Shown piece by piece: positions 2,396 to 41,093 of a DNA stretch of 46,595 bases. The translations under genes were made by a program, and so were the position numbers. The stretch spans positions 1 to 46,595 of the forward strand of contig DAOUWZ010000007.1 of NCBI GenBank assembly GCA_030666865.1. Reading direction: 5' to 3'. Origin of the DNA: a bacterium. GTDB taxonomy: Bacteria > Patescibacteriota > Patescibacteriia > S139-126. The notes under the pieces were generated by a model. It ran no database searches and was not told the origin of the DNA. It worked only from the letters and a program-made list of their open reading frames with translations. Position 1 is the stretch's first letter. Each line of letters begins with the position of its first letter.

Positions 2396-4993
2396 ATGCC
2401 AAGGAGAGAGCAAAACTTTTTTTATATCAAACCAGCGCTGTTTTTTACAGTAGTGTTTTTTATTTTATGTAATGTATCCTCTATTCAAGCTGAAGAATCA
2501 AACATCCAGCCAGAAAACATAATAATTTCGGAAATAATGATCAACCCGAAATCAGTTAAAGATACGGACGGAGAATGGCTGGAAATATATAACAATACTG
2601 AATCTGACTTAAATTTAATAAACTGCACTTTCAAAGATAATGGCACTAACGAATTTCAAATAAATGGAGACTTAATAATTTCTGGTAATGACTTTTTAGT
2701 CTTAGGGAAAAATGATGATATAGAAATAAATGGCGGTCTGAATATTGATTTTGTTTATACTAGCTTCACTCTAGCTAATACTGAGGATGAAATTATTTTG
2801 ATTTGTGATGAAATTGAAATCGACAAAGTAGAATATAGTAAAGATCTGGATTTTAAAATCCCAGAAGGAAAATCAATATTTGTCATTGATTATAGTAAGG
2901 ATAATAATTCTGCGGACAATTGGTGTGAATCTACTAGTGAATTCGGCAGTGGCGACTTTGGCACTCCTGGTGGCCCAAATGACGCTTGCGAATTAAATAA
3001 TGAAGAAGATGATCCACCAGACATTCCCAAAAATAATCCGCCGATAGCAGAAGCTGGCGAGGACATAGACGCCAACACCAATCAAGAAATTATTTTTGAC
3101 GCTTCTGAGTCGTATGATATAGATGAAGACACTCTAATTTATACCTGGAATTTTGGTGATGGCAATACTACTAATAAAAAAATAAGCACTCATAGTTACG
3201 AAAAAGAAAATGTTTATTTAGTAGTGCTGACAGTTGACGATGGAATGGTAACTCAAACTGATTCACTGACTGTTATAGTGTCAAACAATCAAACTACTTC
3301 AACTGAAACTAGCATTATCATTAATGAACTATTACCCAACCCAGCTGGTAGTGATAATGGCGAATGGATTGAACTAAAAAATACTTCTGACAAACCAGCT
3401 AATGTTGAGGGATATAAAATTTCTGATGCTACTGATAAAAAATATACTATTAAATCTGAAAAAATTGGCAATACTACAATACCTGCCAATGGATTTTTAT
3501 TAATCTACAAAAATCAATCAAAAATTTCACTCAACAATACCAAACAAGAAACTGTCAGATTATATTCTCCAAATGATAAATTAATTGATGAAACAACTTA
3601 TTCTGATACTGCCAAAGAAAATATTAGTTATGCAAATTTTGATGGAATTTGGGATTGGACAACAATACTAACACCAGGCAATGACAATATTCTAGCTCGA
3701 CCCAAATCTTCTAAACAGGATATTAAAATTGAAAAAAATTCCAATCCACCAGCAAAAGAATCAACAAGCACCGAGATAACATCCGAACAAATCATCCAGA
3801 TAGAAAATGAATGTCAAAAAGAGAATTTGGACAATATTATTATCAATGAACTTTGGCCTTCACCAGAAGGTGATGATCGGGAAAAAGAATTTATCGAATT
3901 GAAAAATCTAAATAATTTTGATGTAAATATTTGCGGATGGCAATTGACTGATCGAAATCATAAATATATTTTACCTAATAATTCCTTTGTTGCTAAAAAT
4001 GATTTTCTGCTAATTTCACGCCAACAAAGCAGGATTAGTTTAAACAATGCTGGTGATACCATCTCTTTATTTGATTCTGCGGATAAATTGATTGAAGAAG
4101 TTAATTTTTCATCAGCCAAAACTAATTTATCGTGGTCGAAAAATAAAACTGGCGCTTGGAAATGGACTAGTGAAGTTACTCCGGCTGAAGAAAATATATT
4201 TCTTGAGTTAATTGATGAAAAAAATCAAAAGGCAAAGACTAATAGCAAAAATAAAAATTACTACCAGACTATTAATATTGATGAAATCAACAATTATCCG
4301 GCTGGACAAAAATTTATTATCCAAGGTCTGGTAACAGCTCCGCCCGGAGTATTGGGTACGCAAATTATGTATATCAGCGGCAGTAGAGGTTTACAAATAT
4401 ATCAATATAAAAAAGACTGGCCTAATATTTCTTTAAATGATTTTTTAGAAATAAAAGGCGAGCTATCTTATGCTTATGGTGCACCCCGCCTGAAAGTAAA
4501 AAATAAAAGCGATATTATACTTTTAAATAAACAAACTGAAAAAATTGAAGAACTATCTATCACCGAAATAATGCTATTGGACGACAGTATGGTAGGCGCT
4601 TTAATTAAAGTTGGCGGCGAAGTCATCGAAAAAAGTTCAAATAAAATCTTTATTGATGACGGCAGTGGAGAAATCGAAATTTATATAAAATCTTCCACAG
4701 GTATTAGTTTGCCTGAAATAAAAGAGGGTGATATACTTGAAGCAACAGGAATCTTAACTAAAAGTTCAAATAAAATTAAAATCTTTCCCCGTTATTTAAA
4801 TGATCTCAAGGTGGTTTCAGTAAAAGGATGGTCAAATGATTCCAAATTCATTCCAGTAGAAATAAAAAAAGATAATTTTATTCAAATCACCAATTTTTTA
4901 TTTGTAACTTGCGCTGGAATTATCATTATTCTTATTAGCCAAATTTATAAATTAAAGCAAAAAAGATGGAGAAAAAAGAGCAATCAAAAATAA
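2396..4993 (+). CDS. Lamin-tail-domain (LTD) and PKD repeat surface protein with C-terminal OB-like region and TM anchor
   Basis: Three LTD-like starts (IIISEIMINP..GEWLEIYN; IIINELLPNP..GEWIELKN; IIINELWPSP..EFIELKN), PKD (AEAGEDIDANTNQEIIFDASESYDID..YTWNFGDG), C-terminal hydrophobic helix. Confidence 0.8.
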   Translation: MPRREQNFFYIKPALFFTVVFFILCNVSSIQAEESNIQPENIIISEIMINPKSVKDTDGEWLEIYNNTESDLNLINCTFKDNGTNEFQINGDLIISGNDFLVLGKNDDIEINGGLNIDFVYTSFTLANTEDEIILICDEIEIDKVEYSKDLDFKIPEGKSIFVIDYSKDNNSADNWCESTSEFGSGDFGTPGGPNDACELNNEEDDPPDIPKNNPPIAEAGEDIDANTNQEIIFDASESYDIDEDTLIYTWNFGDGNTTNKKISTHSYEKENVYLVVLTVDDGMVTQTDSLTVIVSNNQTTSTETSIIINELLPNPAGSDNGEWIELKNTSDKPANVEGYKISDATDKKYTIKSEKIGNTTIPANGFLLIYKNQSKISLNNTKQETVRLYSPNDKLIDETTYSDTAKENISYANFDGIWDWTTILTPGNDNILARPKSSKQDIKIEKNSNPPAKESTSTEITSEQIIQIENECQKENLDNIIINELWPSPEGDDREKEFIELKNLNNFDVNICGWQLTDRNHKYILPNNSFVAKNDFLLISRQQSRISLNNAGDTISLFDSADKLIEEVNFSSAKTNLSWSKNKTGAWKWTSEVTPAEENIFLELIDEKNQKAKTNSKNKNYYQTINIDEINNYPAGQKFIIQGLVTAPPGVLGTQIMYISGSRGLQIYQYKKDWPNISLNDFLEIKGELSYAYGAPRLKVKNKSDIILLNKQTEKIEELSITEIMLLDDSMVGALIKVGGEVIEKSSNKIFIDDGSGEIEIYIKSSTGISLPEIKEGDILEATGILTKSSNKIKIFPRYLNDLKVVSVKGWSNDSKFIPVEIKKDNFIQITNFLFVTCAGIIIILISQIYKLKQKRWRKKSNQK

Positions 4994-9297: not shown

Positions 9298-9909
9298 ATG
9301 TTAAAAAAAAGACTATTCCCAAATCAAAAGCTTGACGAAAAAATTTTAACAATCCTTAGAAGACATTGGATTATTGCTTTACTTATTGGTATTAAATATA
9401 TATTTTTTTTACTGTTTCCGATATTAGTAACTATTTTTATGTCTTCATTTTTTTCAGAAAATATTAATAAAATTTTATCCGGAACTTTTAGCTATCCAGT
9501 GCTAATCATGGCTTTTTCATTATTTTATTTATTTGTCTGGATCTTCTTTTTTCATGCCTGGATTGACTATTATCTTGATGTCTGGATAGTAACCGATAAA
9601 CGAATAGTTAATATTGAACAAAGAGGATTATTTTCCAGAACTATTTCTGAGCTAAAACTTTTTCGGGTGCAAGATGTCAAAGCTGAGGTGCACGGCATAA
9701 TACCAACATTCTTTCACTACGGCGAAGTAACAGTACAATCAGCTGGTAACGAAACATTTGCAATATTCAAACAAGTGCCGCGTCCATATGAAGTTTCTAG
9801 AGAAATCTCAAAACTGGTAGAACATGACAAAAAAATACACCCCCAAATGCCTGGTGAAAATGTAATCAATCAAGCTAATCCAAACGAAGATGAAACTATC
9901 CCTATTTGA
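9298..9909 (+). CDS. Membrane protein with bacterial PH-like domain
   Basis: Two TMs then DVWIVTDKRIVNIEQRGLFSRTISELKLFRVQDVKAEVHGI. Confidence 0.7.
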   Translation: MLKKRLFPNQKLDEKILTILRRHWIIALLIGIKYIFFLLFPILVTIFMSSFFSENINKILSGTFSYPVLIMAFSLFYLFVWIFFFHAWIDYYLDVWIVTDKRIVNIEQRGLFSRTISELKLFRVQDVKAEVHGIIPTFFHYGEVTVQSAGNETFAIFKQVPRPYEVSREISKLVEHDKKIHPQMPGENVINQANPNEDETIPI

Positions 9910-10996
9910 CTATCATCTACCTCACAAATTAATTACGCAAAAACCTGTCAGGCCGCGGGACCACTCGCGACTTTTTGTGTATAACAAAAAAACTGATAAA
10001 ATCCAGCATAAACATTTCTATGACTTGCCAAAATTTTTGAAACCAGGCGATGTGCTGGTTTTAAATAATTCAAAAGTTTTTCCAGCCAGATTGATTGGCA
10101 AAAAAACAACTGGCGGAAAAATTGAAATTTTTTTATTAAAATATTATGAACAGACATCCGATGTCGGGAGCTCCCGACATCGGATGTCTGACTGCCAAAA
10201 TACTTGGGAAGTAATGATTGGAGGAAAAATAAAACATTCTAATGAAAAAATTACGATCACAAAAAATTTATTTTGTACTATTATAGATAAAAATTCTAAT
10301 AATAGCTGGCTGGTAAAATTCAATTTATCAGGTAATAAATTTTGGCAACAAGTAGAAAAATATGGACAAGCACCTCTACCACCATACATCAAAACTAAAT
10401 CAAATTTAAAAGAATACCAAACAGTCTACGCCAAAATCAAAGGTTCGGTGGCTGCTCCTACAGCTGGCTTTCATTTTACTAAACCACTCTTAAATAAACT
10501 GAAAAAACAAGGCGTGCAAATTGAATATATTACCCTGCACGTGGGCTTGGGTACTTTTGCACCAGTCAAAGAAAAAAATATTACTAAACACCAAATACAT
10601 TCTGAATTAGCAGAAATAAATCAAACAACAGCTAGACGTTTAAACCAAGCTAAAAAGCAAGGACGTAGAATTGTTGCGGTCGGCACTACTGCAATTAGAA
10701 CTTTAGAAGCTTTCAGTGTAGTGACAGGTCGCGCCGCGTCCGCCTCTGGCGTGGACCTGTCACTACAATCTGGGAAAAAATGGACTAATATATTTATCTA
10801 CCCTGGTTATAAATTCAGATTCGTTGATTGCTCAATTACCAATTTTCATCTACCAAAAAGTACCTTACTGATGCTGATTGCGGCATTTTTGGGAAACAAA
10901 AAAACCGGTATTATAATTTTGCATCGCTTATACAAAATTGCGATCAAAAATAAATACCGATTCTATTCCTTTGGCGACGGGATGTTTATTGAGTAA
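9890..10996 (+). CDS. queA: tRNA preQ1(34) S-adenosylmethionine ribosyltransferase-isomerase QueA
   Basis: FDYHLPHKLITQKPVRPRDHSRL, GSVAAPTAGFHFT, LHVGLGTFAPV, VGTTAIRTLE, TNFHLPKSTLLMLIAAF. Confidence 0.95.
   Translation: MKLSLFDYHLPHKLITQKPVRPRDHSRLFVYNKKTDKIQHKHFYDLPKFLKPGDVLVLNNSKVFPARLIGKKTTGGKIEIFLLKYYEQTSDVGSSRHRMSDCQNTWEVMIGGKIKHSNEKITITKNLFCTIIDKNSNNSWLVKFNLSGNKFWQQVEKYGQAPLPPYIKTKSNLKEYQTVYAKIKGSVAAPTAGFHFTKPLLNKLKKQGVQIEYITLHVGLGTFAPVKEKNITKHQIHSELAEINQTTARRLNQAKKQGRRIVAVGTTAIRTLEAFSVVTGRAASASGVDLSLQSGKKWTNIFIYPGYKFRFVDCSITNFHLPKSTLLMLIAAFLGNKKTGIIILHRLYKIAIKNKYRFYSFGDGMFIE
10151..10190. repeat. Perfect 40-bp palindrome inside queA
   Basis: CAGACATCCGATGTCGGGAG|CTCCCGACATCGGATGTCTG. 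Confidence 0.95.
10717..10767. repeat. Palindromic insert inside queA (14-bp outer stem)
   Basis: TGTAGTGACAGGTC...GACCTGTCACTACA with GC-rich partly paired interior. Confidence 0.9.
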
Positions 10997-22033: not shown

Positions 22034-22711
22034 CTACTTCTTTTTCCTACTCTTTGCCTTTTCTTTCCGCCATTTCGCAATCTCCGCATGATTGCCAGAC
22101 AAAAGTACTTTAGGCACTTTTAATTTCTTACCTTGATGTTCAATAACTTCCGGGCGAGTATATTGCGGATATTCTATATAATCCAAACTACGGGAAAAAG
22201 TTTCATCTTCGGCGGAATGTTTATGACCAAGCACACCGGGAATTAAACGAGCGCAAGCTTCAACAATAGTCAGAGCTGGTAATTCCCCGCCTGCCAATAC
22301 ATAAGGCCCAACAGAAATTTTTTCATCAACCAACTTATCAATCCGCGCGTCAAACCCTTCATATCTGCCAGATATTAATATCAATTGATTAAACTTAGCC
22401 AATCGTTCCGCATCTCTTTGTGTAAACTGCTTCCCAGCTGGAGTAAGTAACACAACCCTACTCTTTTTCCTGCTTGATACTTTATTCTTAATACTTGATA
22501 CCAATTTCGCTATCGGCTCAAACATCAAAATCATTCCTGGGCCGCCACCATACGGCCTGTCATCCACGCTATTGTGTTTGTCATTCGCAAATTTTCTGGG
22601 AGTATGCGTCTTTATTTTTATCAATTTCTTCTGTAAGGCACGCTTAATAATTGACTCATTTAGATATGAATCAAAAATCTCTGGAAAAATTGTGATAATA
22701 TCAAACCGCAT
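22034..22711 (-). CDS. trmD: tRNA (guanine-N1)-methyltransferase TrmD
   Basis: MRFDIITIFPEIFDSYLNESIIKRA, VDDRPYGGGPGMI, GRYEGFDARI, ALTIVEACARLIPGVLG, YTRPEVIEHQGKKLKVPKVLLSGNHAEI. Confidence 0.97.
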   Translation of the reverse strand: MRFDIITIFPEIFDSYLNESIIKRALQKKLIKIKTHTPRKFANDKHNSVDDRPYGGGPGMILMFEPIAKLVSSIKNKVSSRKKSRVVLLTPAGKQFTQRDAERLAKFNQLILISGRYEGFDARIDKLVDEKISVGPYVLAGGELPALTIVEACARLIPGVLGHKHSAEDETFSRSLDYIEYPQYTRPEVIEHQGKKLKVPKVLLSGNHAEIAKWRKEKAKSRKKK

Positions 22712-22760
22712 TTATAAAAATTTATTTTATCTTTTATTAGTATAACAAAAAATATTAAAA

Positions 22761-22794
22761 TGAACATACCATTGAACGTTCATTGGTATGTTCA
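22761..22794. repeat. Near-perfect 34-bp palindrome upstream of trmD
   Basis: TGAACATACCATTGAAC|GTTCATTGGTATGTTCA, one mismatched pair. Confidence 0.85.
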
Positions 22795-23027
22795 CTAAAA
22801 AAATCCCCTGACACCTGCCAACCAGCAAGTAGAAAGGGAATTTAGGAGATTTATATTAATTGGGTAAATAATCTTTCATCCACCCTGCACCTGTTTACAA
22901 GGGAGAGAGATGGCCTTGTATTAAGACAAGTGCAGAGCGGGTGAAAGAGGGTAAGCAAGTACAATGCTTGCCCAAGAATTCGACCTTACGGATCATTTTT
23001 TCCTGCCGAATGAGGGGATCAGACTGG

Positions 23028-23246
23028 CTATCTCCCAATCTTAATATAAAAATCCCCTTTTATGACGAGATCCTCCTCGCCAAAAAGATCCTTGTTTTGA
23101 TTAACTTCTCTCTCCTTCATCCATGAATTGGAAAGAGTCGAATAAATCTCTAAATTTTTTTGTCCGGGTTTCCACCGGACTAAATTCTCCCAACCAGTCT
23201 TGATGTCAATCAAGACTTTATAAATAGCTTTTTTCCTTCCAAACAT
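23028..23246 (-). CDS. Hypothetical 72-aa protein at end of the Ubl island
   Basis: Good SD (AGGAGGAAAG-ATG); no recognisable domain. Confidence 0.6.
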   Translation of the reverse strand: MFGRKKAIYKVLIDIKTGWENLVRWKPGQKNLEIYSTLSNSWMKEREVNQNKDLFGEEDLVIKGDFYIKIGR

Positions 23247-23487
23247 CTTTCCTCCTGCCCTTATTTAACGCCGCGGTCGACGGCATTTGTTATTTTTTGT
23301 TTTCTTTAGTTGGTTATTTTTACTGACAACAAGTCAGCACAAACAACCAACTAAAAATGATATATTTAATTTCAAAGAACTACTCTTTCATTAAAACTTG
23401 GAAAAAGAAGGGAGATAAATATCTCCCTAAACTCAACTACTATCACCTAAAGGCGAGAGGTTTTTCTCCCAAAAGGGACAATAAATC

Positions 23488-23832
23488 TTAATTTTCAAAT
23501 TCAACTCTGACGGTTTTTATCCGTCGGAAACGATTGAATTTGTAATTACGATGACGATAGATAATGTCCGCCTCTTGGGCAGAACTCACCTGATTCATCT
23601 GGCACCATAGGGGTTTAATCCCCAGTTCAGTTAATTTTGAAATGACCGACAACGGCGCCACAACGACCATATCGTCAAAACCGCCAGATTTATATCGGAA
23701 CACAATCTCCTCTGCCGAAGAAAACGGCTTTGGATCCTGAATCACTTGCGTGTCAAATCCAAACATTTCCTTTAGTGCGTCAATCTGCACAGCCAATGGT
23801 TTATGCCGCGACATCCATAAAATCTTTTTCAT
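23488..23832 (-). CDS. Hypothetical 114-aa protein (possibly Rossmann-like)
   Basis: SD TAGGAGATAGAAATG; MKKILWMSRHKPLAVQIDALKEMFG...MVVVAPLSVISKLTELGIKPLW alternating helix/strand pattern. Confidence 0.7.
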   Translation of the reverse strand: MKKILWMSRHKPLAVQIDALKEMFGFDTQVIQDPKPFSSAEEIVFRYKSGGFDDMVVVAPLSVISKLTELGIKPLWCQMNQVSSAQEADIIYRHRNYKFNRFRRIKTVRVEFEN

Positions 23833-24560
23833 TTCTATCTCCTATTTTAATGAACTATTTTATTTAACTCTTCTTAATTAAATTCATGATGAATTATAAA
23901 TTTAATTAAGAAGGGGAGAAAGCGCATATTCTCCCCAAATGCAACTTTGCCAGCTAGCACTTAAATTTGTTGATATTGGGTCTAGGATTATCCACCTTTT
24001 CCCATATCTCACCTCAGCCCGCTAGGCAGATGCTGGCATTTGGCCATTTTGGCCTGCATTGTATGAGGGCTTTTCAAGGAATTAGCATCTGCTTCACATC
24101 TGCTTAAGCTTTGGTTTTCCCTTGGATGGTTTTTCTCACATAACGCCAACATGTGAGGATTTTTCATTCTGACGATTCCATAAAATCAATATATCAGAAA
24201 GTCTTAAGAGAGGTTATGTTTACCATTAGAGGGTATATTATTTTTATCAAAATATATACCGCGCAAACTTCCTCTATTCTTAAGCTACGAATCAATAAAG
24301 ATTCCAACAAACTTTATTGATAAGTCCATATAAATTTCTTTAGAGTTCACTTTCTCATTGAAAGCCTGGATTATCTCCAGATCATTCTAGACCGGCTGAA
24401 GCTTGCCCAAATGACATTGCGAAATTGTCTCGGGACTCGCCTCCCTATCTGCCTGTGTTCAGGACTCACTCAGCCCGAAATCCTTATTCCGTAAAGAAAC
24501 CACACAGATGAATAAATTATAGTTCTATGGAAAACTATAATTACCTGGAAAGTCTAGCTT

Positions 24561-24639
24561 CCCAATTAAACCTACTTAAAAAATAAGCTTAATTGGAAAG
24601 GGAAGAAGTAAGAAGTGCAATTCTTACTTCTTCCCAAGT
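24561..24639. repeat. Structured repeat unit A (two hairpins)
   Basis: CCCAATTAAACCTACTTAAAAAATAAGCTTAATTGG then GGAAGAAGTAAGAA-GTGCAA-TTCTTACTTCTTCC then CAAG. Confidence 0.7.
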
Positions 24640-24952
24640 TTATAGTACCCCCGCAATTAAATCGGGGCTTAATAGCCAACTGGCCCTTTTAAATTTCGTT
24701 TAATTTTGGAGATCATCCGCCCCTAATATAACTACTCTTTAAACTGCGCCAGACAGGAATTTGACCAATTTCTTCACGCCATAAGTTTTTGCAGAAGATT
24801 AGCTTCATACCAGTTACCTTGCGGGGCACCTGCGTCGGTCTTGTTGGTTCTCTTCTGGCTGGTTTCTTTTTTTGTCGTTCCAGCTACGACGAAAAATGAT
24901 CGGGTGGCATAATTGCCTCCTTATTTTTATTTTTGGGAAAACATTATTATTT

Positions 24953-25054
24953 TCCCAATTAAATCCACTAAAAAATAATGAACTTAATTGGAAAGAGGGG
25001 TTAAGTGAAATGTCGTCGTGCAAACGATATTTCTACCCCTCTATTTTTCCAAGT
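24953..25054. repeat. Structured repeat unit B (two hairpins), paralogous to unit A
   Basis: CCCAATTAAATCCACTAAAAAATAATGAACTTAATTGG then GAGGGGT...GTGCAA...ACCCCTC then CCAAG. Confidence 0.7.
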
Positions 25055-25316
25055 GCAATTTTTGGCTTACTCAACCATTTGGCCGCGGCGTCATCTGATT
25101 ACTCAGACATCTTCACCATTGCGACTCGTATGGATTTCGGCCGGCCCTGATAATTTAAGGCCTTTAGTCCGGGAGATTCACGCCTTTGCCCGGCTGGCGG
25201 AGAGCTTGCCTCTCAGCATCAGGAATTCCAGCCTTTATGGTCTATTTTTTCAAGACCCCTGAATGGCTACCAAGTTTTAAAAACCTGATGAAAATTTTAC
25301 CGCTTTTACCGTCGAC

Positions 25317-26282
25317 TTATAATACCTTTTGCAAAATGTTGATTGTTTCAATCAAGTCGACTTTGCGCGCCGTCGCCTTCGATTTCAAGCCGTAACCGCG
25401 GAGAACTTCGCGGAGTTCTGTGCGCTTCATCGTGGTGAGCTCATCGTCGGAGTAGCGGGTGAATACACCCAGCTCAGACAAACGAGCTTTTGCGACTTCA
25501 TAATCAGCGCGGGCAGTCTCAATTGCTTCAGCTTTGGCTTTGTGGGCCGCAACTTCTTTTTTCAGGCTTGCCGCTTTTTCGAGCAATTTGCGCGCTTCTT
25601 CTTCAGCGGATTCTGCATTTTGTATCATTATATCCGCTTCGGAATTTAATTTTTCCGGATCAGTGCCGGATACAGCAACAACTTCTGAATTACTCGGTGT
25701 GGGAATAGTTGCCGGAGCAAACTCATAGCCGGCGGAGTGAATAAAAATTTCGTCACCTTCCTGCAACTTTTGGTCCAAATCGGCCTGAAATGATTCTTCG
25801 CCGTCATAAACAACGATGAGATCATTTTCGGCAACTTTTACAGCGGCGGCGGCAAGAGCCTGTTTGATTGTCCCAGCATTATCCCCACCTTCCTCGTCAG
25901 AAGCTTCGTAAATACAAACTTCATCAAAGGAACCAGGGATCCGACCGACTTTCACCGTAAACTGGTTACCTTGGATCTTCGGAACGACTAAAACGATGTC
26001 GCCGTCAGAAACAGGGGTATCCCATGCAATATTTTCCCAGCGGTCACTAACTTTTTCAGCCAGCATTCTGCCGTTAAGTTGCGGGACATCAATCATATTT
26101 CCGCTTGAACCGCTGTATTCGCCTGTACGGATTTCAAATGCGGGATCCGAGAGTCCTTTTTTGCGGCCAATTTCTTGAGCCGCTAACTTCATGACACCCA
26201 GAACCGTGAAATGTCCGGTACCATTCAACTGTAATTCAACGATTGTGCCGGGAACTTTCCCAGCTTTGATAAAAGTACTCAT
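25317..26282 (-). CDS. Predicted tandem ubiquitin-like (beta-grasp) protein with coiled coil and C-terminal SAP/HeH-like domain
   Basis: Start MSTFIKAG at 26282 with SD GGAGGTACTTACTA. Duplicated modules KAGKVPGTIVELQLNG.../KVGRIPGSFDEVCIYEA..., each ending SDGDIVLVVPKIQGN / QEGDEIFIHSAG; tail KRTELREVLRGYGLKSKATARKVDLIETI resembles SAP. Confidence 0.72.
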   Translation of the reverse strand: MSTFIKAGKVPGTIVELQLNGTGHFTVLGVMKLAAQEIGRKKGLSDPAFEIRTGEYSGSSGNMIDVPQLNGRMLAEKVSDRWENIAWDTPVSDGDIVLVVPKIQGNQFTVKVGRIPGSFDEVCIYEASDEEGGDNAGTIKQALAAAAVKVAENDLIVVYDGEESFQADLDQKLQEGDEIFIHSAGYEFAPATIPTPSNSEVVAVSGTDPEKLNSEADIMIQNAESAEEEARKLLEKAASLKKEVAAHKAKAEAIETARADYEVAKARLSELGVFTRYSDDELTTMKRTELREVLRGYGLKSKATARKVDLIETINILQKVL

Positions 26283-26372
26283 TAGTAAGTACCTCCATAA
26301 TTTTTGTTTAAGGTCCATGGTCCTTAAATAAGTTAATAAGTTGCCATGACAACTATAATTAATTATTAAATA

Positions 26373-27110
26373 TTATTTTGTAACCCAGTTGCAGGTGGTG
26401 ATCAAGACCGGCTTGATGCACAGCATATCATAATTGCTATGATCATCACCTTCCTTAATCTCCACTTTAGATGCGATATCAAAATCGCCGGCTGTGAATT
26501 TAATCAATTTGTGTGCGGCTAAACCGGCAGTAACCGACACAACTGTGCCAATAGCGCGATAGGTACATGGGCTAGCCTCACCCTCGCCGTCCTCAAATAG
26601 TGTGTCCTCAAAGTTCTTTACGTCAGACGGGTAACAAGGCTTCACTGTGTGGACGATACAGAGTTCAGCACCCAGACGGGTTTCCACCATCAATTTGACA
26701 TTTAACTGATACTTGATGGCTTTCTCCCAAATCTCTTTCCGACTAGACATGGTGTCGGTGCAAAGAAAAATTATGCCGGAAAACTTTTGAGACCCGTCAA
26801 CTTTCTCATTGTGAGGCACAACTTCACATCCACAATCGACATCCAACCTCTGCTTAAGAGCATTGATTTTATATTCACCCACATCACCTCGACCAAAAAT
26901 TTGGTTAGGTAGATTATGAGCTTCAACAACATCAAAATCCCAAGCGTGAAGCTTTCTTACTCCCATTTTGGCTAAAATGTAAGCAATCCAGCTTCCGGTT
27001 GCGCCTACCCCAATAATATGAACTTCCTCATTGAACGCTTCGGGGTTAAAAACGTCCAATTGTCTCCAATAATCAGGAGTCGCCAATGTCTGTTTAGTAC
27101 TTTTTGACAT
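26373..27110 (-). CDS. E1-like (ThiF/ubiquitin-activating-type) enzyme
   Basis: Start MSKSTKQ at 27110 with AAGGAGGTCGTA SD; VHIIGVGATGSWIAYILAKMG, WDFDVVEAHNLPNQIFGRGDVGEYKINAL, candidate catalytic Cys in EASPCTYRAIGTVVSVTAGLAAHKLI. Confidence 0.88.
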   Translation of the reverse strand: MSKSTKQTLATPDYWRQLDVFNPEAFNEEVHIIGVGATGSWIAYILAKMGVRKLHAWDFDVVEAHNLPNQIFGRGDVGEYKINALKQRLDVDCGCEVVPHNEKVDGSQKFSGIIFLCTDTMSSRKEIWEKAIKYQLNVKLMVETRLGAELCIVHTVKPCYPSDVKNFEDTLFEDGEGEASPCTYRAIGTVVSVTAGLAAHKLIKFTAGDFDIASKVEIKEGDDHSNYDMLCIKPVLITTCNWVTK

Positions 27111-27831
27111 TACGACCTCCTTTCTTGGAGGAATGAGTCGTGCGTTTGGAGGAATGAGTAGAGCTGGGAAATTCATTTCCGAAATTCCAATTCCCGCTTT
27201 CATAATTGGTCACAGGCGGTGGTGCTTTACGCACCTTTTTGGATAATTCCGTTTTGATTTTATCCCTCAGATCCGCCTGTTCCAGCTCAAAGATTTCCCA
27301 CTCCACATCCTCGATTTTAATTCCAAGGTCGTAGAAGAAAATTTCAAACCGAAAGTTGCCGGATTTATTGGCAATCCCCATAATGAAATAATCGGAGGAT
27401 TCGCCAAACTGGTGCATCTGGCTCAAATCACCGTAGTTACCGGGACCGTATGAACCGCTAGGCGTTACTCCCATATTTACATGAGAATGCCCCCAAAAAC
27501 GGACGTTATTAACCAACTCAACTCCATCGTCTCGTCCGGCCAATTCTGCAAAAAAGGCACCTACACTGTCAGGATCCAATGCGGTCTGGGTTGAATGTAC
27601 CTCTTGATCAAAAAGGTAAACCTCTTCAATCAAGAAATTCATACCCTGCCGCTGGACTTTTCCCAGCCATGAAACCTCTTCCGGTGACTCAGACACAATG
27701 TAGTACATTATGTCGTAAGCCGTTTTCGAAATAAGAATTCGTGGTAGATCCCCGAGCAATTTCACAGTTGACGTGAATTTATGTGGCACAAACCTTTTAG
27801 CTGCCCCACATACAAAATTAATTAAATTCAT
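27094..27831 (-). CDS. JAB/JAMM (MPN) metallopeptidase-like protein
   Basis: ILISKTAYDIMYYIVSESPEEVSWLGKV...VRFWGHSHVNMGVTPSGSYGPGNYGDLSQMHQF; 17-nt overlap with E1 gene. Confidence 0.82.
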   Translation of the reverse strand: MNLINFVCGAAKRFVPHKFTSTVKLLGDLPRILISKTAYDIMYYIVSESPEEVSWLGKVQRQGMNFLIEEVYLFDQEVHSTQTALDPDSVGAFFAELAGRDDGVELVNNVRFWGHSHVNMGVTPSGSYGPGNYGDLSQMHQFGESSDYFIMGIANKSGNFRFEIFFYDLGIKIEDVEWEIFELEQADLRDKIKTELSKKVRKAPPPVTNYESGNWNFGNEFPSSTHSSKRTTHSSKKGGRNVKKY

Positions 27832-27852
27832 CAAAAAATCTCCTATTTTAAT

Positions 27853-28920
27853 TTACTTACTTTCAACGACAGGCCAATTTTCAATCTTGCGATACGGATC
27901 GCCAGAATTATAGCTATGGAGATACTGAACACACAAAATTACAATTATTGAATATTCATAATCTCCTAAAAGCTGAGGGATGGCCTCTTTGATATTTCCT
28001 AAACAAGGACTGCTGCTATCCACATGAGGGTGATCATAGCTGTCTTGTTTATTTGTGAGGTTGTACATCCTCACTCCGCCGTTTCCACCATCTGTAAAAA
28101 TTTCTATCCGAAAATCACCAATGTTATAAGTTTTACCATCGTATTCAACATAAATACGATCAGTAAAGATATTAATTTTACCAGACTCAACCTTTACCTT
28201 AACAACATGAGGTACCTCATGGAGTTTTTCAAATTCTTTTAAGTACCTCTCGCTAGCTTCAGGTTGGCTTAATTTGAGCTGAGCAAGCTTTTTCCTTTGC
28301 CCGTCAAGGATCCTTATTTGTTCCACCAACTTACGTTGATAATCCTTGATAGCGTTATCAGCTCGTTCAATCTCTTTTTTTGTGCCAGTCAAAATTTTTT
28401 CAAACCTTTTTTGGCACTCGTTGAGCCACGCCTCTCTGGCTTTAGCGATCTCAGTAGCTTTTTCAGCCATAATGACCGCTTTCTTTTCCGGATCCTGCAA
28501 TGCAACGTACTGTTGCATTATCCCTGCCATAAATTCACTATTATGACCTCCATGAGGGAGATCAAATAAAACAAATATAGTTCCATCATGAACTTCGGCC
28601 AAGGTCACGGTTTGAACAGAAATAGGATCAATAATAGGAATCCCTTGTCCGCTCGGTTTAACCCCGTCGTGTTGACCGGAGTCAGTACTGCGACCAAAAG
28701 CTTCCTCTATTTTTGTACTATTAAAAGAAGCTCCCTCGGGGAGTGACCAAAACCTGATAAATAACATGCCTGGCTCGGTCTTGATTGAACTATTTTTTCC
28801 GTGCGGATTATCTACTGAAATGTTTACTTTCAGAAGTTCCGCAAATTCCTGAAGGGCAGATTCAATCTTGCCCCAATTTTCGAGATTGTCGCCAGTCCTT
28901 TCAACTTTATATTTACTCAA
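27853..28920 (-). CDS. E2-like (ubiquitin-conjugating-type) protein with long coiled-coil N-terminal region
   Basis: TTG start at 28920 preceded by GGGAGG; C-terminal YNIGDFRIEIFTDGGNGGVRMYNLTNKQDSYDHPHVDSSSPCLGNIKEAIPQLL..CVQYLHSYNSGDPYRKIENWP matches E2 HPN-C-(SIQxLL)-PNPxxPY layout; candidate catalytic Cys codon 28003-28005. Confidence 0.72.
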   Translation of the reverse strand: MSKYKVERTGDNLENWGKIESALQEFAELLKVNISVDNPHGKNSSIKTEPGMLFIRFWSLPEGASFNSTKIEEAFGRSTDSGQHDGVKPSGQGIPIIDPISVQTVTLAEVHDGTIFVLFDLPHGGHNSEFMAGIMQQYVALQDPEKKAVIMAEKATEIAKAREAWLNECQKRFEKILTGTKKEIERADNAIKDYQRKLVEQIRILDGQRKKLAQLKLSQPEASERYLKEFEKLHEVPHVVKVKVESGKINIFTDRIYVEYDGKTYNIGDFRIEIFTDGGNGGVRMYNLTNKQDSYDHPHVDSSSPCLGNIKEAIPQLLGDYEYSIIVILCVQYLHSYNSGDPYRKIENWPVVESK

Positions 28921-29167
28921 TTTTACCTCCCTTGCCTTTAGCGCATCATCCGGCGCAGCAGGCAAATTTATTGATTTACTTGTTATTTAAATTCTTCTAT
29001 TCAGGTTTTGAGAGCGATTACTCTCTCCTCAATAATACTCTCAAAACCTTTAAGAAGAATTTAATTTTAGAAAGAATTGTTATCTTCACCCTTCACATAA
29101 ATTTATGTGAAGGATGAATATCTAATCCAACATAGCCAGATAACAAAAACTATGTGGTTTTATAATT

Positions 29168-29309
29168 ACCCAGCACTAAGTTTTGACTTGAAACGCTTTG
29201 TGCGTTTCATTTTTTATTATTCTAATCTCTACGACCGACCATTTTAAAAATTAATCTCTGTGCGACTTTTTAATTATTTTTTGTTAACTGTCAAAACTTA
29301 GTGCTGGGT
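29168..29309. repeat. 20-bp perfect inverted repeat flanking about 100 nt
   Basis: ACCCAGCACTAAGTTTTGAC ... GTCAAAACTTAGTGCTGGGT, with inner hairpin GAAACGCTTTGTGCGTTTC. Confidence 0.9.
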
Positions 29310-30242
29310 TTAATTGTCAAAGTTCATCCCGCTAGACTTTCTTGATGCCATCAAACTTCTCCTCAAAGTCTGAAGGCGCCAGATAGTAGCCAGGAAATTT
29401 ATGAATTGAATATTTATTCAAGTCATAAATTTCCTCACTAAAATATTATTTATTCTTTTTAAATGTTTTGTACCAGCCAAAGGAAAAGAAATTACACCCT
29501 CCGCCCTGTCGGGCACCTCCCTTAAGGGAGGATATTATTTTTCCTTTCCTTTGGCTGTGATCGGTTTTGACGCCAATCAAGTCAAAGGGCACTCTCCTAT
29601 AAACTTCAGATAAGTCTATAGGGCGATCAGCTTTGTTGGCCGTTCCACGGTTAATCCGTAGTTCTGGTAATTCCGGCTGTCGCATAGATCCTTCACAAAA
29701 ATTGTAAAAATCTTTGTGAAGGGTTTATCTGATGACTAATATTTTCAGCAAGATACCTCTCTTCTCTAGATTAAGGTTTAATAACTCTTGCTAAAAATAT
29801 TAATGTCTTTTTAATTTATTATTCAGTTGTAAATTTAATGAACTATTTTATTTTCCCTATCTACTTAGGAAAATTTTGGGGGGAGTGGCTATTTTGAATC
29901 TCTACCTGCCGGCAGACAGGAATTATTATTATGATTATTATCCAAAAATATTGCCCGCTCTCCTCTTTTATCTCTCTCCCCAAAATTCTCCCAACTAAAA
30001 CAAACTCTCATCCGTTATTAGAGAGAGTTTCTTTATTGCTTAAATTAAATCTATTTGACTATGTACTTTTACAGTGTACTAACTGTCTCTCTCTTAAAAT
30101 AATATGTTGTAATGAACTCAATCATACTCTTCACTCATTCCCGCACATATTTTATATGCGGGATGACTAAAGACTACTTTTAGGAGTTGATATCGGAACT
30201 ACCTCTCTCCTCATGTGTAGTTCCAATACCAGCTACCACTCT

Positions 30243-30290
30243 TATTTCGCCTTAGTATTGCGCTTATATTTGCCTTTGGCAGATTTCATA
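30243..30290 (-). CDS. Very short leader ORF MKSAKGKYKRNTKAK
   Basis: AAGGAGAGAGAAT-ATG on minus strand, 15 codons then TAA; first SD-equipped ORF after the operon promoter. Confidence 0.4.
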
Positions 30291-30362
30291 TTCTCTCTCC
30301 TTAGTAATATGACCCCTGCGATCCTGGCTTTAAAATTTTTCAATGTTTTAACTTAACAGACC

Positions 30363-30390
30363 AGTATAGCATACTAGCAAATTTTGTCAA
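30363..30390 (-). promoter_or_regulatory. Near-consensus extended -10 promoter for the Ubl operon
   Basis: Minus strand TTGACA-AAATTTGCTAGTATGC(16)-TATACT with TGC immediately upstream of the -10. Confidence 0.75.
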
Positions 30391-30474: not shown

Positions 30475-30506
30475 ATAATTTTGTCATTTTCTATTGACAA
30501 AATTAT
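30475..30506. promoter_or_regulatory. Operator-like inverted repeat
   Basis: ATAATTTTGTCA-TTTTCTAT-TGACAAAATTAT, 12-bp perfect arms; overlaps the -35 of the TrmB-like gene. Confidence 0.65.
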
Positions 30507-30529: not shown

Positions 30530-31321
30530 ATGGAAAAGAAAAAAAACAATCAAAAAACAACAGAGACTTCTCTACTGTCACAGGTAGGGCTTAGTAAAAA
30601 CGAGGCCCAAATATATGAAATTATGCTAAAATTAGGTAAAATTCCTGCTTCTAAAATATTTACTAATCTTAGCCAAAAACGCACTACAGTCTATGCAGTA
30701 CTGGAAGAATTGATTAAAAAAGGATTAGTAGAAAAAGACGACAGTCAACCAGTAGCTGAATTTCGAGCTAAACACCCTTACACCTTGAAAGAAATGATTG
30801 ACACACAAGTACAAAGTATAAAAACAGCTGAAAATAAGCTAGACGCCGTGCTACCTGATTTTATATCTTTTTATAACCAATCTCAAAAACGCCCTGGGAT
30901 TGTATTTTATGAAGGTATAGCCGGAATAAAAAAAATCCACCAAAACATTTTGACGGAGCAAAAAGAAATTCTAGCTTATGTGTATATAAATAAAGAGGTT
31001 GATAAAATTCTGGCTAACTACTGGGAGTCATATTATAAAACCAGAATAAAAAATAATATTCATGTTCGAGCTGTATCACCCAACAATTCTGACGGCAAAC
31101 AATACAAGAAAAACGACGAAAAAGAACTACGTGAGACTAGGCTTATACCAGAGGATCAATTTCCTATTACGATCGAAAAAAACATCTGCGGCAATAAAGT
31201 TGCTTATCTATCTTTGCAACCAAACGAACTTCTTGGCGTCATGATTGAAAGCGCTGAAATTGCCAAAACCGAAAAATCCATATTTGAACTTGTTTGGAAA
31301 CAAGCTAAAAATTACATTTAA
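30530..31321 (+). CDS. TrmB-like HTH transcriptional regulator
   Basis: LLSQVGLSKNEAQIYEIMLKLGKIPASKIFTNLSQKRTTVYAVLEELIKKGLVEKDD winged-helix pattern. Confidence 0.85.
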   Translation: MEKKKNNQKTTETSLLSQVGLSKNEAQIYEIMLKLGKIPASKIFTNLSQKRTTVYAVLEELIKKGLVEKDDSQPVAEFRAKHPYTLKEMIDTQVQSIKTAENKLDAVLPDFISFYNQSQKRPGIVFYEGIAGIKKIHQNILTEQKEILAYVYINKEVDKILANYWESYYKTRIKNNIHVRAVSPNNSDGKQYKKNDEKELRETRLIPEDQFPITIEKNICGNKVAYLSLQPNELLGVMIESAEIAKTEKSIFELVWKQAKNYI

Positions 31322-40223: not shown

Positions 40224-41093
40224 TTATTTTATTTTGCTTTTAGCTTTTTGCCAAATTTCTCTTGCTTGATCATAACTCAAGACACCTTCCACTTCATCAA
40301 ATTCATACCACCTAGCATCTTTCATTTCACCAACATTCTGAGCTGGAGTAATTTTTTCATCCAAAGCCTCAATCAAATACATAAAAACGGTTTTGGGATA
40401 AGGTTTATTATTTGGCTCTCTAACTGTAAGATCCAATTCACCAATCTTTTCACCAACTTTCAAATCTTTTAATCCAAGTTCTTCACCAATTTCTCTTTTA
40501 ACAGCGTTTTCCGGCTCCTCATCTTTTTCTATATGTCCTTTAGAAAAAGTCCATCTATTATGACCATCTAAAATAAGAGCTATTTTGATACCATTAGGAA
40601 ATTTCCGCCAAACTACTCCACCAGCTGAAAACTGCCTATCTCCAAGTGATGGTGTGTCCATTCCCTGTTTTTCTCCTTTCTCTTCCATTTTTTTATAAAT
40701 GGAACCAAGCACCCCATTGATAAATTTGCCTGACGAATCACCGCCAAACGTTTTTGCCAATTCAATGGATTCGTTTATGGCTACTTTTGGAGGAATATCA
40801 CGGGTATATTTCAATTCATATATACCAAGTCTTAAAACATTTCTGTCTATCACCGTAATCTGTTCAATTGGCCATTCTGGCGCATATTTAACAATTAAAC
40901 TATCAATTTCAGGTATCTTTTCCACTACACCGTTAAGTAGACCTTCAGCAAAACCCTGATCGTCAAAATCAGGAGCAAATTCAACAAAATTATAACCAAG
41001 CATGCCAGCCAATTTATCTTTAGGCATGTTGTTAAAATCCCATTCAAACAATGTTTGTAATGCTAAAGTACGCGCTAAATGACGATTTGACAT
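40224..41093 (-). CDS. NusB fused to a Nudix hydrolase domain
   Basis: N-terminal NusB (RHLARTLALQTLFEWDF...AINESIELAKTFGGDSSGKFINGVLGSIYK) followed by Nudix box (GHIEKDEEPENAVKREIGEELGL). Confidence 0.9.
   Translation of the reverse strand: MSNRHLARTLALQTLFEWDFNNMPKDKLAGMLGYNFVEFAPDFDDQGFAEGLLNGVVEKIPEIDSLIVKYAPEWPIEQITVIDRNVLRLGIYELKYTRDIPPKVAINESIELAKTFGGDSSGKFINGVLGSIYKKMEEKGEKQGMDTPSLGDRQFSAGGVVWRKFPNGIKIALILDGHNRWTFSKGHIEKDEEPENAVKREIGEELGLKDLKVGEKIGELDLTVREPNNKPYPKTVFMYLIEALDEKITPAQNVGEMKDARWYEFDEVEGVLSYDQAREIWQKAKSKIK

What the first reader, a model, noticed from the sequence alone, without database searches (positions are those of the whole stretch)
28966..30360. About 1.4 kb hairpin-dense leader between the operon promoter and the first Ubl-system gene
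From the strong promoter (30363-30390) to the E2 gene there is no sizeable convincing CDS but a succession of stems: GGTATTGGAACTAC/GTAGTTCCGATATC (with G.U pairs), TCCCGCATATAAAATATGTGCGGGA, AAACTCTC..GAGAGTTT, GGAGAATTTTGGGGAGAG/CTCCCCCCAAAATTTTCC, CCTTCACAAA..TTTGTGAAGG, CAGCCAAAGGAAA../..TTTCCTTTGGCTG, AGGAAATTTATGA..TCATAAATTTCCT, the 20-bp repeat 29168-29309, CCTTCACATAAATTTATGTGAAGG and AGGTTTTGAGAG..CTCTCAAAACCT. This suggests a large structured RNA or a cascade of regulatory elements made from the same promoter as the Ubl system.
Basis: partly seen in the sequence, partly recalled or inferred. Interest (0 to 1): 0.75.

Follow-up and report, generated by a model that had tools for sequence, protein, structure and literature searches.

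The report
Hairpin-rich RNA leader of ubiquitin-like operon
A bacterial gene cluster resembling the ubiquitin machinery of higher organisms is preceded by a 1.4-kb untranslated, heavily folded RNA leader whose hairpin loops are exactly complementary to the exposed loop of a previously uncatalogued non-coding RNA found across this bacterial class, suggesting that the cluster is controlled by loop-to-loop RNA pairing.

Summary
Minus strand 30362-28921 carries 7 long inverted repeats against 0.07 in shuffles. It folds 18 SD below shuffles, against 11 for the opposite strand. It has one strong promoter, no intrinsic terminator on its strand and no Rfam match. It is not conserved as one large RNA, and other long spacers here also fold strongly. 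A homologous operon in genome G163 has a comparable 1.07-kb structured leader with unrelated sequence.

New here: six leader sites match GAGGAGAGAG with at most one mismatch (0.1 expected, 0/2000 shuffles). Three, including both exact copies, lie mainly unpaired in hairpin loops. They complement AAAWCUCUCUCCUC, the unpaired element of an Rfam-unknown ncRNA across this class (54 hits versus 3 for the reversed pattern), often just upstream of murJ. This genome has one copy; a variant, CUCUCUCCC, ends the same gene cluster in a similar terminator-closed hairpin.

Best reading: a structured 5' leader controlling the operon by loop-loop pairing in cis or trans, perhaps with boxA antitermination (boxA-like sites in four homologous leaders). 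Structure is well supported; the pairing mechanism is inferred.

The parts
30530..31321 (+). TrmB-family regulator, divergent from the leader
   Evidence: Pfam TrmB 2.2e-14; 39% identical to the TrmB gene next to the related ncRNA in genome G002
30475..30506 (.). Operator-like palindrome ATAATTTTGTCA/TGACAAAATTAT between the divergent promoters; its TGACAAAATT half also overlaps the leader's -35 region
   Evidence: 12-bp perfect inverted repeat I22; function inferred
30363..30390 (-). Sigma-70-type promoter TTGACA-N16-TATACT of the leader and operon
   Evidence: 11/12 match with TG before the -10
28921..30362 (-). Untranslated, hairpin-dense 5' leader RNA
   Evidence: MFE -472 vs -315 +/- 8.5 for shuffles; no Rfam family
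30242..30289 (-). Possible 15-codon leader peptide MKSAKGKYKRNTKAK with SD-like AAGGAG, inside the first GGAGAGAG hairpin (30287-30311)
   Evidence: Sequence; coding not tested
30185..30234 (-). Hairpin H2, 18-nt arms, 14-nt loop ACATGAGGAGAGAG (exact GAGGAGAGAG)
   Evidence: motif P(unpaired) 0.90
30138..30162 (-). Hairpin TCCCGCATATAAAATATGTGCGGGA
   Evidence: Sequence
30002..30030 (-). Hairpin AAACTCTC..GAGAGTTT; its 5' arm CTCTCTC could compete for the GAGAGAG sites
   Evidence: Sequence; competition inferred
29860..29999 (-). Hairpin H6, 26-nt arms, containing GGGGAGAGAG and GAGGAGAGCG; perfect complement of CUCUCUCCC at 22909-22901
   Evidence: weak match to the GGGGAGAGAG-domain model R2, 14.3 bits, E 0.33, not significant
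29735..29804 (-). Hairpin H7, 19-nt arms, loop with GAGAAGAGAG
29690..29722 (-). Hairpin CCTTCACAAAGATT/AATTTTTGTGAAGG
29446..29685 (-). 79-codon frame with codon-like start (MRQPELPELRINRG...); in-frame tail GYYLAPSDFEEKFDGIKKV* at 29391-29332 beyond two hairpin inserts; possibly a broken gene
   Evidence: only matches itself in 287 class genomes
29474..29557 (-). Hairpin H9 with a repeat-like palindromic sequence (CCTCCCTTAAGGGAGG...) in its loop
29387..29440 (-). Hairpin H10, 25-nt arms, 4-nt loop
29310..29326 (-). boxA-like element TGAACTTTGACAATTAA
   Evidence: Best hit of a textbook boxA matrix, 1/200 shuffles as good; equivalent sites in G163, G073 and G182 leaders
29168..29309 (-). Hairpin H11, 20-bp perfect stem enclosing 102 nt
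29082..29121 (-). Hairpin ATATTCATCCTTCACATA/TATGTGAAGGGTGAAGAT
28987..29064 (-). Hairpin H14, two stacked perfect stems, loop with exact GAGGAGAGAG
   Evidence: motif P(unpaired) 0.80
27853..28920 (-). E2-like protein; TTG start, conserved HPH...PC motif
   Evidence: Alignment A1; class homologues
27094..27834 (-). JAB-like protein
   Evidence: phmmer match to JAB-like proteins of homologous operons, E 6e-59 in G163; no Pfam hit
26373..27203 (-). E1-like ThiF protein
   Evidence: Pfam ThiF 1.1e-23
25317..26318 (-). Ubiquitin-like protein
   Evidence: Weak ThiS-like hit below cut-off; operon position; weak match in G163
22797..23020 (-). 3' structured domain: closing stem GATCCCC/GGGGAT followed by TTTTTTT (terminator-like), enclosing a long hairpin that exposes CUCUCUCCC (22909-22901)
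   Evidence: Fold, P(unpaired) 0.77; same architecture as the class-wide ncRNA, but model R1 gives only 12.8 bits, E 0.055

Best explanation
The stretch is the transcribed, untranslated 5' leader (about 1.44 kb, minus strand 30362-28921) of the E2/JAB/E1/Ubl operon, made from the promoter at 30390-30363. It is an array of long hairpins, and several hold the sequence GAGGAGAGAG (or one mismatch) in or beside the loop. These loops are complementary to CUCUCUCCUC, the conserved unpaired element of a class-specific ncRNA whose copy in this genome lies upstream of murJ (G000:C35 about 3255-4090), and to a CUCUCUCCC hairpin that ends the same gene cluster (22909-22901). Proposed mechanism: loop-loop (kissing or pseudoknot) pairing between the leader and this ncRNA in trans, or the 3' hairpin in cis, controls stability or translation of the operon, while the dense folding and the boxA-like element near the E2 end help transcription of a long untranslated stretch. 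Shown computationally: structure, strand bias, motif enrichment, exposure of some sites, conservation of the partner element. Inferred: that the pairing forms, and its effect on expression.
For: Structure. Promoter and absence of a minus-strand terminator in the leader. Motif: 2 exact and 6 sites with at most one mismatch against 0.003 and 0.10 expected, 0/2000 shuffles; mean P(unpaired) 0.64 against 0.38 at random positions, P 0.0028; predicted duplexes of the exact copies with the L056 loop -18.7 and -21.4 kcal/mol. GGAGAGAG occurs in only 3 of 81 long spacers of the genome: this leader, the Ubl 3' spacer and the L056 ncRNA. Partner ncRNA: promoter and terminator in L056 (sequence; fold), homologues in G001 and G002, 13 of 43 pairs with two-sided changes in three sequences, AAAWCTCTCTCCTC 54 hits against 3 reversed-control hits in 307 class genomes and not clearly enriched elsewhere in the phylum, median P(unpaired) 0.98 over 30 loci. 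In those loci GAGGAGAGAG-like sites on the same strand fall 10 upstream and 0 downstream of the element. boxA-like sites. The same TrmB family neighbours the G002 ncRNA.
Against: The leader itself has no homologue, so its pairing has no covariation support. The other Ubl leaders examined (G163, G073, G182) lack GAGGAGAGAG, so the link is not a general property of this operon. Model R1 does not recognise the window's 3' hairpin significantly and R2 only weakly matches H6, slightly better on the wrong strand. Two of the six leader sites are mostly paired and one is intermediate. Seven GAGGAGAGAG-like sites also lie on the opposite strand in the 30 loci. A possible terminator at 23428-23409 may separate the 3' hairpin from the operon transcript. 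No expression data.
Confidence: 0.5

Rival explanations
1. A structured leader whose main purpose is processive antitermination: boxA loads NusB/NusE onto RNA polymerase so that the operon is reached despite a long untranslated, folded leader. The GAGGAGAGAG loops would be incidental.
For: An independent boxA matrix has its best hit in all four homologous leaders (1/200, 0/200, 0/200, 10/200 shuffles as good) between promoter and first gene. NusB is encoded in the window (TIGR01951 128 bits). boxA in mRNA leaders outside rRNA operons is documented (PMC5725501).
Against: No rho gene found in this 99.6% complete genome, so the classical target of boxA antitermination is missing. The genome's own 16S leader has no strong hit with the same matrix. 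Does not explain six GAGGAGAGAG-like sites.
Confidence: 0.2
2. Non-functional spacer: palindromic repeats and hairpin insertions accumulated in decayed DNA between a promoter and an acquired operon; folding energy is a by-product.
For: A repeat-like element sits in the loop of H9, an apparent small gene is interrupted in frame by hairpin inserts, operon GC (0.42-0.47) exceeds its surroundings, and other spacers also fold strongly.
Against: Operon-strand bias of folding and of G.U mismatches; motif enrichment and exposure; a 1.07-kb structured leader (z -15.7) before the same operon in G163; boxA-like site in homologous leaders.
Confidence: 0.2
3. A large stand-alone structured RNA (architectural or catalytic, in the manner of OLE, ROOL or GOLLD) that happens to share the operon promoter.
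For: Size and density of stems.
Against: No Rfam match, no homologue in 96 genomes, no terminator before E2.
Confidence: 0.05
4. Leader-peptide attenuation: translation of the 15-codon basic peptide at 30289-30242 controls refolding of the leader.
For: SD-like AAGGAG with good spacing to ATG; a short basic frame also occurs in the G163 leader (sequence).
Against: No anti-terminator/terminator pair on the minus strand; the peptide is not conserved.
Confidence: 0.05

Closest known systems
C-rich-loop regulatory RNAs that pair with Shine-Dalgarno-like G-rich sites (such as RoxS and IsrR; PMC5419742, PMC9410917, abstracts listed)
   Same: A pyrimidine-rich unpaired stretch of a small RNA complementary to SD-like GGAG sequences in mRNAs; often a stand-alone gene with a terminator
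   Different: Here the complementary sites are several, lie in hairpin loops of one very long leader, mostly far from a start codon, and the RNA has no match among known families
boxA-containing leaders of rRNA operons and of suhB (PMC5725501)
   Same: boxA-like sequence between promoter and first gene, near structured RNA
   Different: No Rho found in this genome; leader is over 1 kb and precedes a ubiquitin-like operon
OLE, ROOL, GOLLD, HEARO large bacterial RNAs
   Same: Hundreds of nucleotides of dense structure
   Different: No Rfam match, not conserved in sequence, continuous with an mRNA
Bacterial ubiquitin-like conjugation operons (E1, E2, JAB, Ubl)
   Same: Gene set and order E2, JAB, E1, Ubl
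   Different: To my knowledge the leader is not a described part of these systems; among homologues examined only G163 has one of similar length

Membership tests
GOLLD / ROOL / OLE / HEARO and other Rfam large RNAs | Match to the family covariance model | tested here: not met
   No Rfam family over the region; best sub-threshold hits are chance-level
Class-specific CUCUCUCCUC ncRNA (new, defined here) | Terminator-closed 3' domain with unpaired AAAWCUCUCUCCUC within the leader | tested here: not met
   Not in the leader on the operon strand; R1 finds nothing in the window in the full search; one plus-strand palindromic hit at 28977-29071, 21.4 bits, in the restricted search
Class-specific CUCUCUCCUC ncRNA (new, defined here) | Same domain at the end of the Ubl cluster (23020-22797) | tested here: inconclusive
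   Architecture fits with variant CUCUCUCCC, but R1 only 12.8 bits, E 0.055
Class-specific CUCUCUCCUC ncRNA (new, defined here) | GGGGAGAGAG hairpin domain (model R2) | tested here: inconclusive
   H6 14.3 bits minus, 16.3 bits plus, E 0.33 and 0.089
Regulatory RNA target by loop pairing | Exact complementarity of exposed loops | tested here: met
   Two exact copies in loops with P(unpaired) 0.90 and 0.80
Regulatory RNA target by loop pairing | Demonstrated effect of pairing on expression | not testable with these tools
   Needs mutants or RNA-RNA crosslinking
boxA antitermination leader | boxA sequence at a comparable position in homologous leaders | tested here: met
   Four leaders
boxA antitermination leader | Binding of NusB/S10 and anti-termination | not testable with these tools
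   NusB present, rho not found
Transcription attenuator cascade | Intrinsic terminators on the operon strand | tested here: not met
   None on the minus strand within the leader
Ubiquitin-like conjugation operon | E1 (ThiF) with E2, JAB and Ubl genes | tested here: met
   E1 by Pfam; E2/JAB/E1 order shared with homologous operons; Ubl only weakly supported

The most novel reading that the evidence does not exclude
The leader and the 3' hairpin are two halves of one bipartite RNA element (5' GAGGAGAGAG hairpins, 3' terminator-closed CUCUCUCCUC domain, joined by long-range pairing) that frames exchangeable genes. In this genome the framed cargo is a whole ubiquitin-like conjugation operon. In G004 (L157) a 122-aa frame, in G076 (L159) a frame of about 100 aa, and in G142 (L187) one of about 200 aa lie between GAGAGAG-type hairpins and the 3' domain.
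Probability: 0.2. Interest if true: 0.85.

Novelty: new variant of a known kind. Interest (0 to 1): 0.6.

Why it matters
If right, a bacterial ubiquitin-like system is under RNA control through loop-loop pairing with a non-coding RNA that is conserved across a class of ultra-small bacteria and, as far as Rfam 15 shows, uncatalogued. That would give an entry point to post-transcriptional regulation in a group with almost no experimental genetics, and would tie a regulatory RNA to the murJ neighbourhood of the genome.

Tried and rejected
Known large RNAs and any other Rfam family: no match. DNA homologues of the leader in its own genome, 96 relatives and plasmids: none beyond self-palindromes and short low-complexity stretches. 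The small frame at 29685 as a conserved gene: no relative. Hairpin density as such as a mark of distinction: weakened, since other spacers are also structured. A first loop test with permissive stems found nearly every motif 'in a hairpin' and was discarded. Internal promoter as the reading of TTGACAA: no -10 in three of four leaders. Membership of the leader in the L056 RNA class by covariance model: not met.

Full report
Setting. The window is contig 27 of a 1.09-Mb, 99.6% complete genome. Homologous operons lie in genomes the search tool places in the same class; the named ones are Candidatus Buchananbacteria and Uhrbacteria, so the class is probably ABY1 of the Patescibacteria (inference). 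The operon reads, on the minus strand, E2-like (TTG start 28920), JAB-like, E1 (ThiF, Pfam 1.1e-23) and Ubl. A TrmB-family regulator is divergent at 30530.

Observation. Seven inverted repeats of 14 bp or more compare with 0.07 in shuffles, and the full leader folds at -472 kcal/mol against -315 +/- 8.5; the opposite strand gives -402 against -282 +/- 11. With every mismatch penalised equally, stem mismatches are G.U 8 times and A.C 4 times on the operon strand, and 5 against 0 in the spacer after the operon. This favours a minus-strand RNA, though counts are small. The promoter is strong and no intrinsic terminator lies on the minus strand within the leader.

Controls. Folding far below shuffles is not unique: L056 spacer z -15.7, L048 -10.8, L053 -8 to -11, the spacer after the Ubl operon -8.8, E2 coding sequence -6.9, a neighbouring methyltransferase gene +0.2. 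Among 81 spacers of 400 nt or more the leader has the most hairpins per kb. rho was not found in the genome, which may make long untranslated leaders tolerable (inference).

Homologous operons. A profile of E2 found 17 of 383 class genomes. G163 has the closest full operon, with a promoter of the same form (11/12) and a leader of about 1.07 kb that folds at z -15.7. G073 and G182 have leaders of about 180 nt sharing a hairpin AGGAGGAAAAGCTAAACAGGCAAATTTTG...CCTTTCCTC; their two differences in it keep the pairs. A boxA matrix built from three textbook rrn sequences (from memory) has its best hit between promoter and first gene in all four leaders: 1, 0, 0 and 10 of 200 shuffles as good. NusB is encoded in the window. 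boxA in leaders outside rRNA operons is known (PMC5725501).

The loop motif. GAGGAGAGAG occurs twice exactly and six times with at most one mismatch in the leader; 2000 shuffles gave 0.003 and 0.10 on average and never reached either count. The sites at 30302, 30212 and 29030 are mainly unpaired (0.80, 0.90, 0.80); 29965 is 0.60, 29766 0.45 and 29981 0.28. The mean, 0.64, exceeds random positions (0.38, P 0.0028). In 1.01 Mb of the genome only three of the 81 long spacers hold GGAGAGAG on either strand: this leader, the Ubl 3' spacer and L056 3079-4257.

The partner RNA. L056 3226-4090 has its own promoter, dense structure (z -18.9) and a hairpin with a U-tract, between a DUF4012-type gene and murJ (gene names from my reading of the proteins). 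It is conserved in the same family: G001 at the same place, G002 beside a TrmB gene 39% identical to the window's. In the 3' domain, 13 of 43 pairs have two-sided changes in three sequences (three sequences only, structure derived from them). The model finds further copies in G004, G051 and G076. Its invariant unpaired element AAAWCTCTCTCCTC occurs 54 times in 51 of 307 class genomes against 3 hits of the reversed pattern; in the phylum sample, genomes outside the class have 14 hits against 9 in the control by my count, not clearly more. Ten of 30 loci have murJ just downstream. In five murJ-linked copies the invariant parts are AAGCTG, the element and GGCAGCTTTTT, a terminator-closed small RNA. 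No Rfam family matches in 20 loci. CUCUCUCCUC is the exact reverse complement of GAGGAGAGAG.

End of the cluster. On the minus strand, 23020-22797 folds as GATCCCC...GGGGAT-TTTTTTT enclosing a long hairpin with CUCUCUCCC (P unpaired 0.77), complementary to GGGAGAGAG of H6. The covariance model does not recognise it significantly (12.8 bits, E 0.055), and a possible terminator at 23428 may lie before it. Cis pairing over 7 kb is therefore only a possibility. In the 30 loci, GAGGAGAGAG-like sites on the element's strand lie 10 upstream and 0 downstream, but 7 lie on the other strand, and two control words had 3-5 sites in all on that strand.

Mechanism. I think it most likely that the leader is a platform for loop-loop pairing with the class-wide RNA, in trans or with its relative at the cluster's end, tuning operon expression; boxA may help transcription through the leader. 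Structure and complementarity are computed results; pairing and effect are inferred. The main weakness is that leaders of homologous operons lack GAGGAGAGAG and that no close relative of this genome was available.

Verdict. Observation confirmed, interpretation partly supported; the new class-wide RNA and its complementarity with the leader are the more interesting result.

Noticed in passing
L056 3226-4090 (G000:C35), L142 about 950-1665, L143 about 1002-1620: A free-standing structured ncRNA not in Rfam, with promoter and terminator, conserved in three genera; shorter relatives across the class, often upstream of murJ.
   Followed up: yes
window 29310-29326; L086 about 3447-3463; L057 and L085 leaders: boxA-like element in four leaders of homologous Ubl operons.
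   Followed up: yes
whole genome G000: No rho gene found with TIGR00767 although the family is detected in 12 of 14 control genomes.
   Followed up: partly
window 40224-41093: NusB fused to a C-terminal Nudix-like domain in one reading frame.
   Followed up: no
window 10149-10193: A long near-perfect palindrome inside a 368-aa reading frame (9890-10996), found as a chance hit of model R2.
   Followed up: no
window 29332-29685: A small frame apparently interrupted in frame by two hairpin inserts, one carrying a repeat-like palindrome.
   Followed up: partly
L018 17956-18017 (minus): Another exact GAGGAGAGAG on top of a 24-nt stem, at the end of a gene and just before the next.
   Followed up: partly
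L057 12030-12205 and L085 5980-6145 (minus): Conserved short leader hairpin with AGGAGG in its stem and no start codon nearby, before Ubl operons of two related genomes.
   Followed up: partly
L157 1054-1422, L159 (reverse strand), L187: Small unrelated reading frames lie between GAGAGAG-type hairpins and the CUCUCUCCUC domain.
   Followed up: partly
window 22711-25316: Long, structured, mostly non-coding spacers after the Ubl gene with two small frames (114 and 72 aa).
   Followed up: partly
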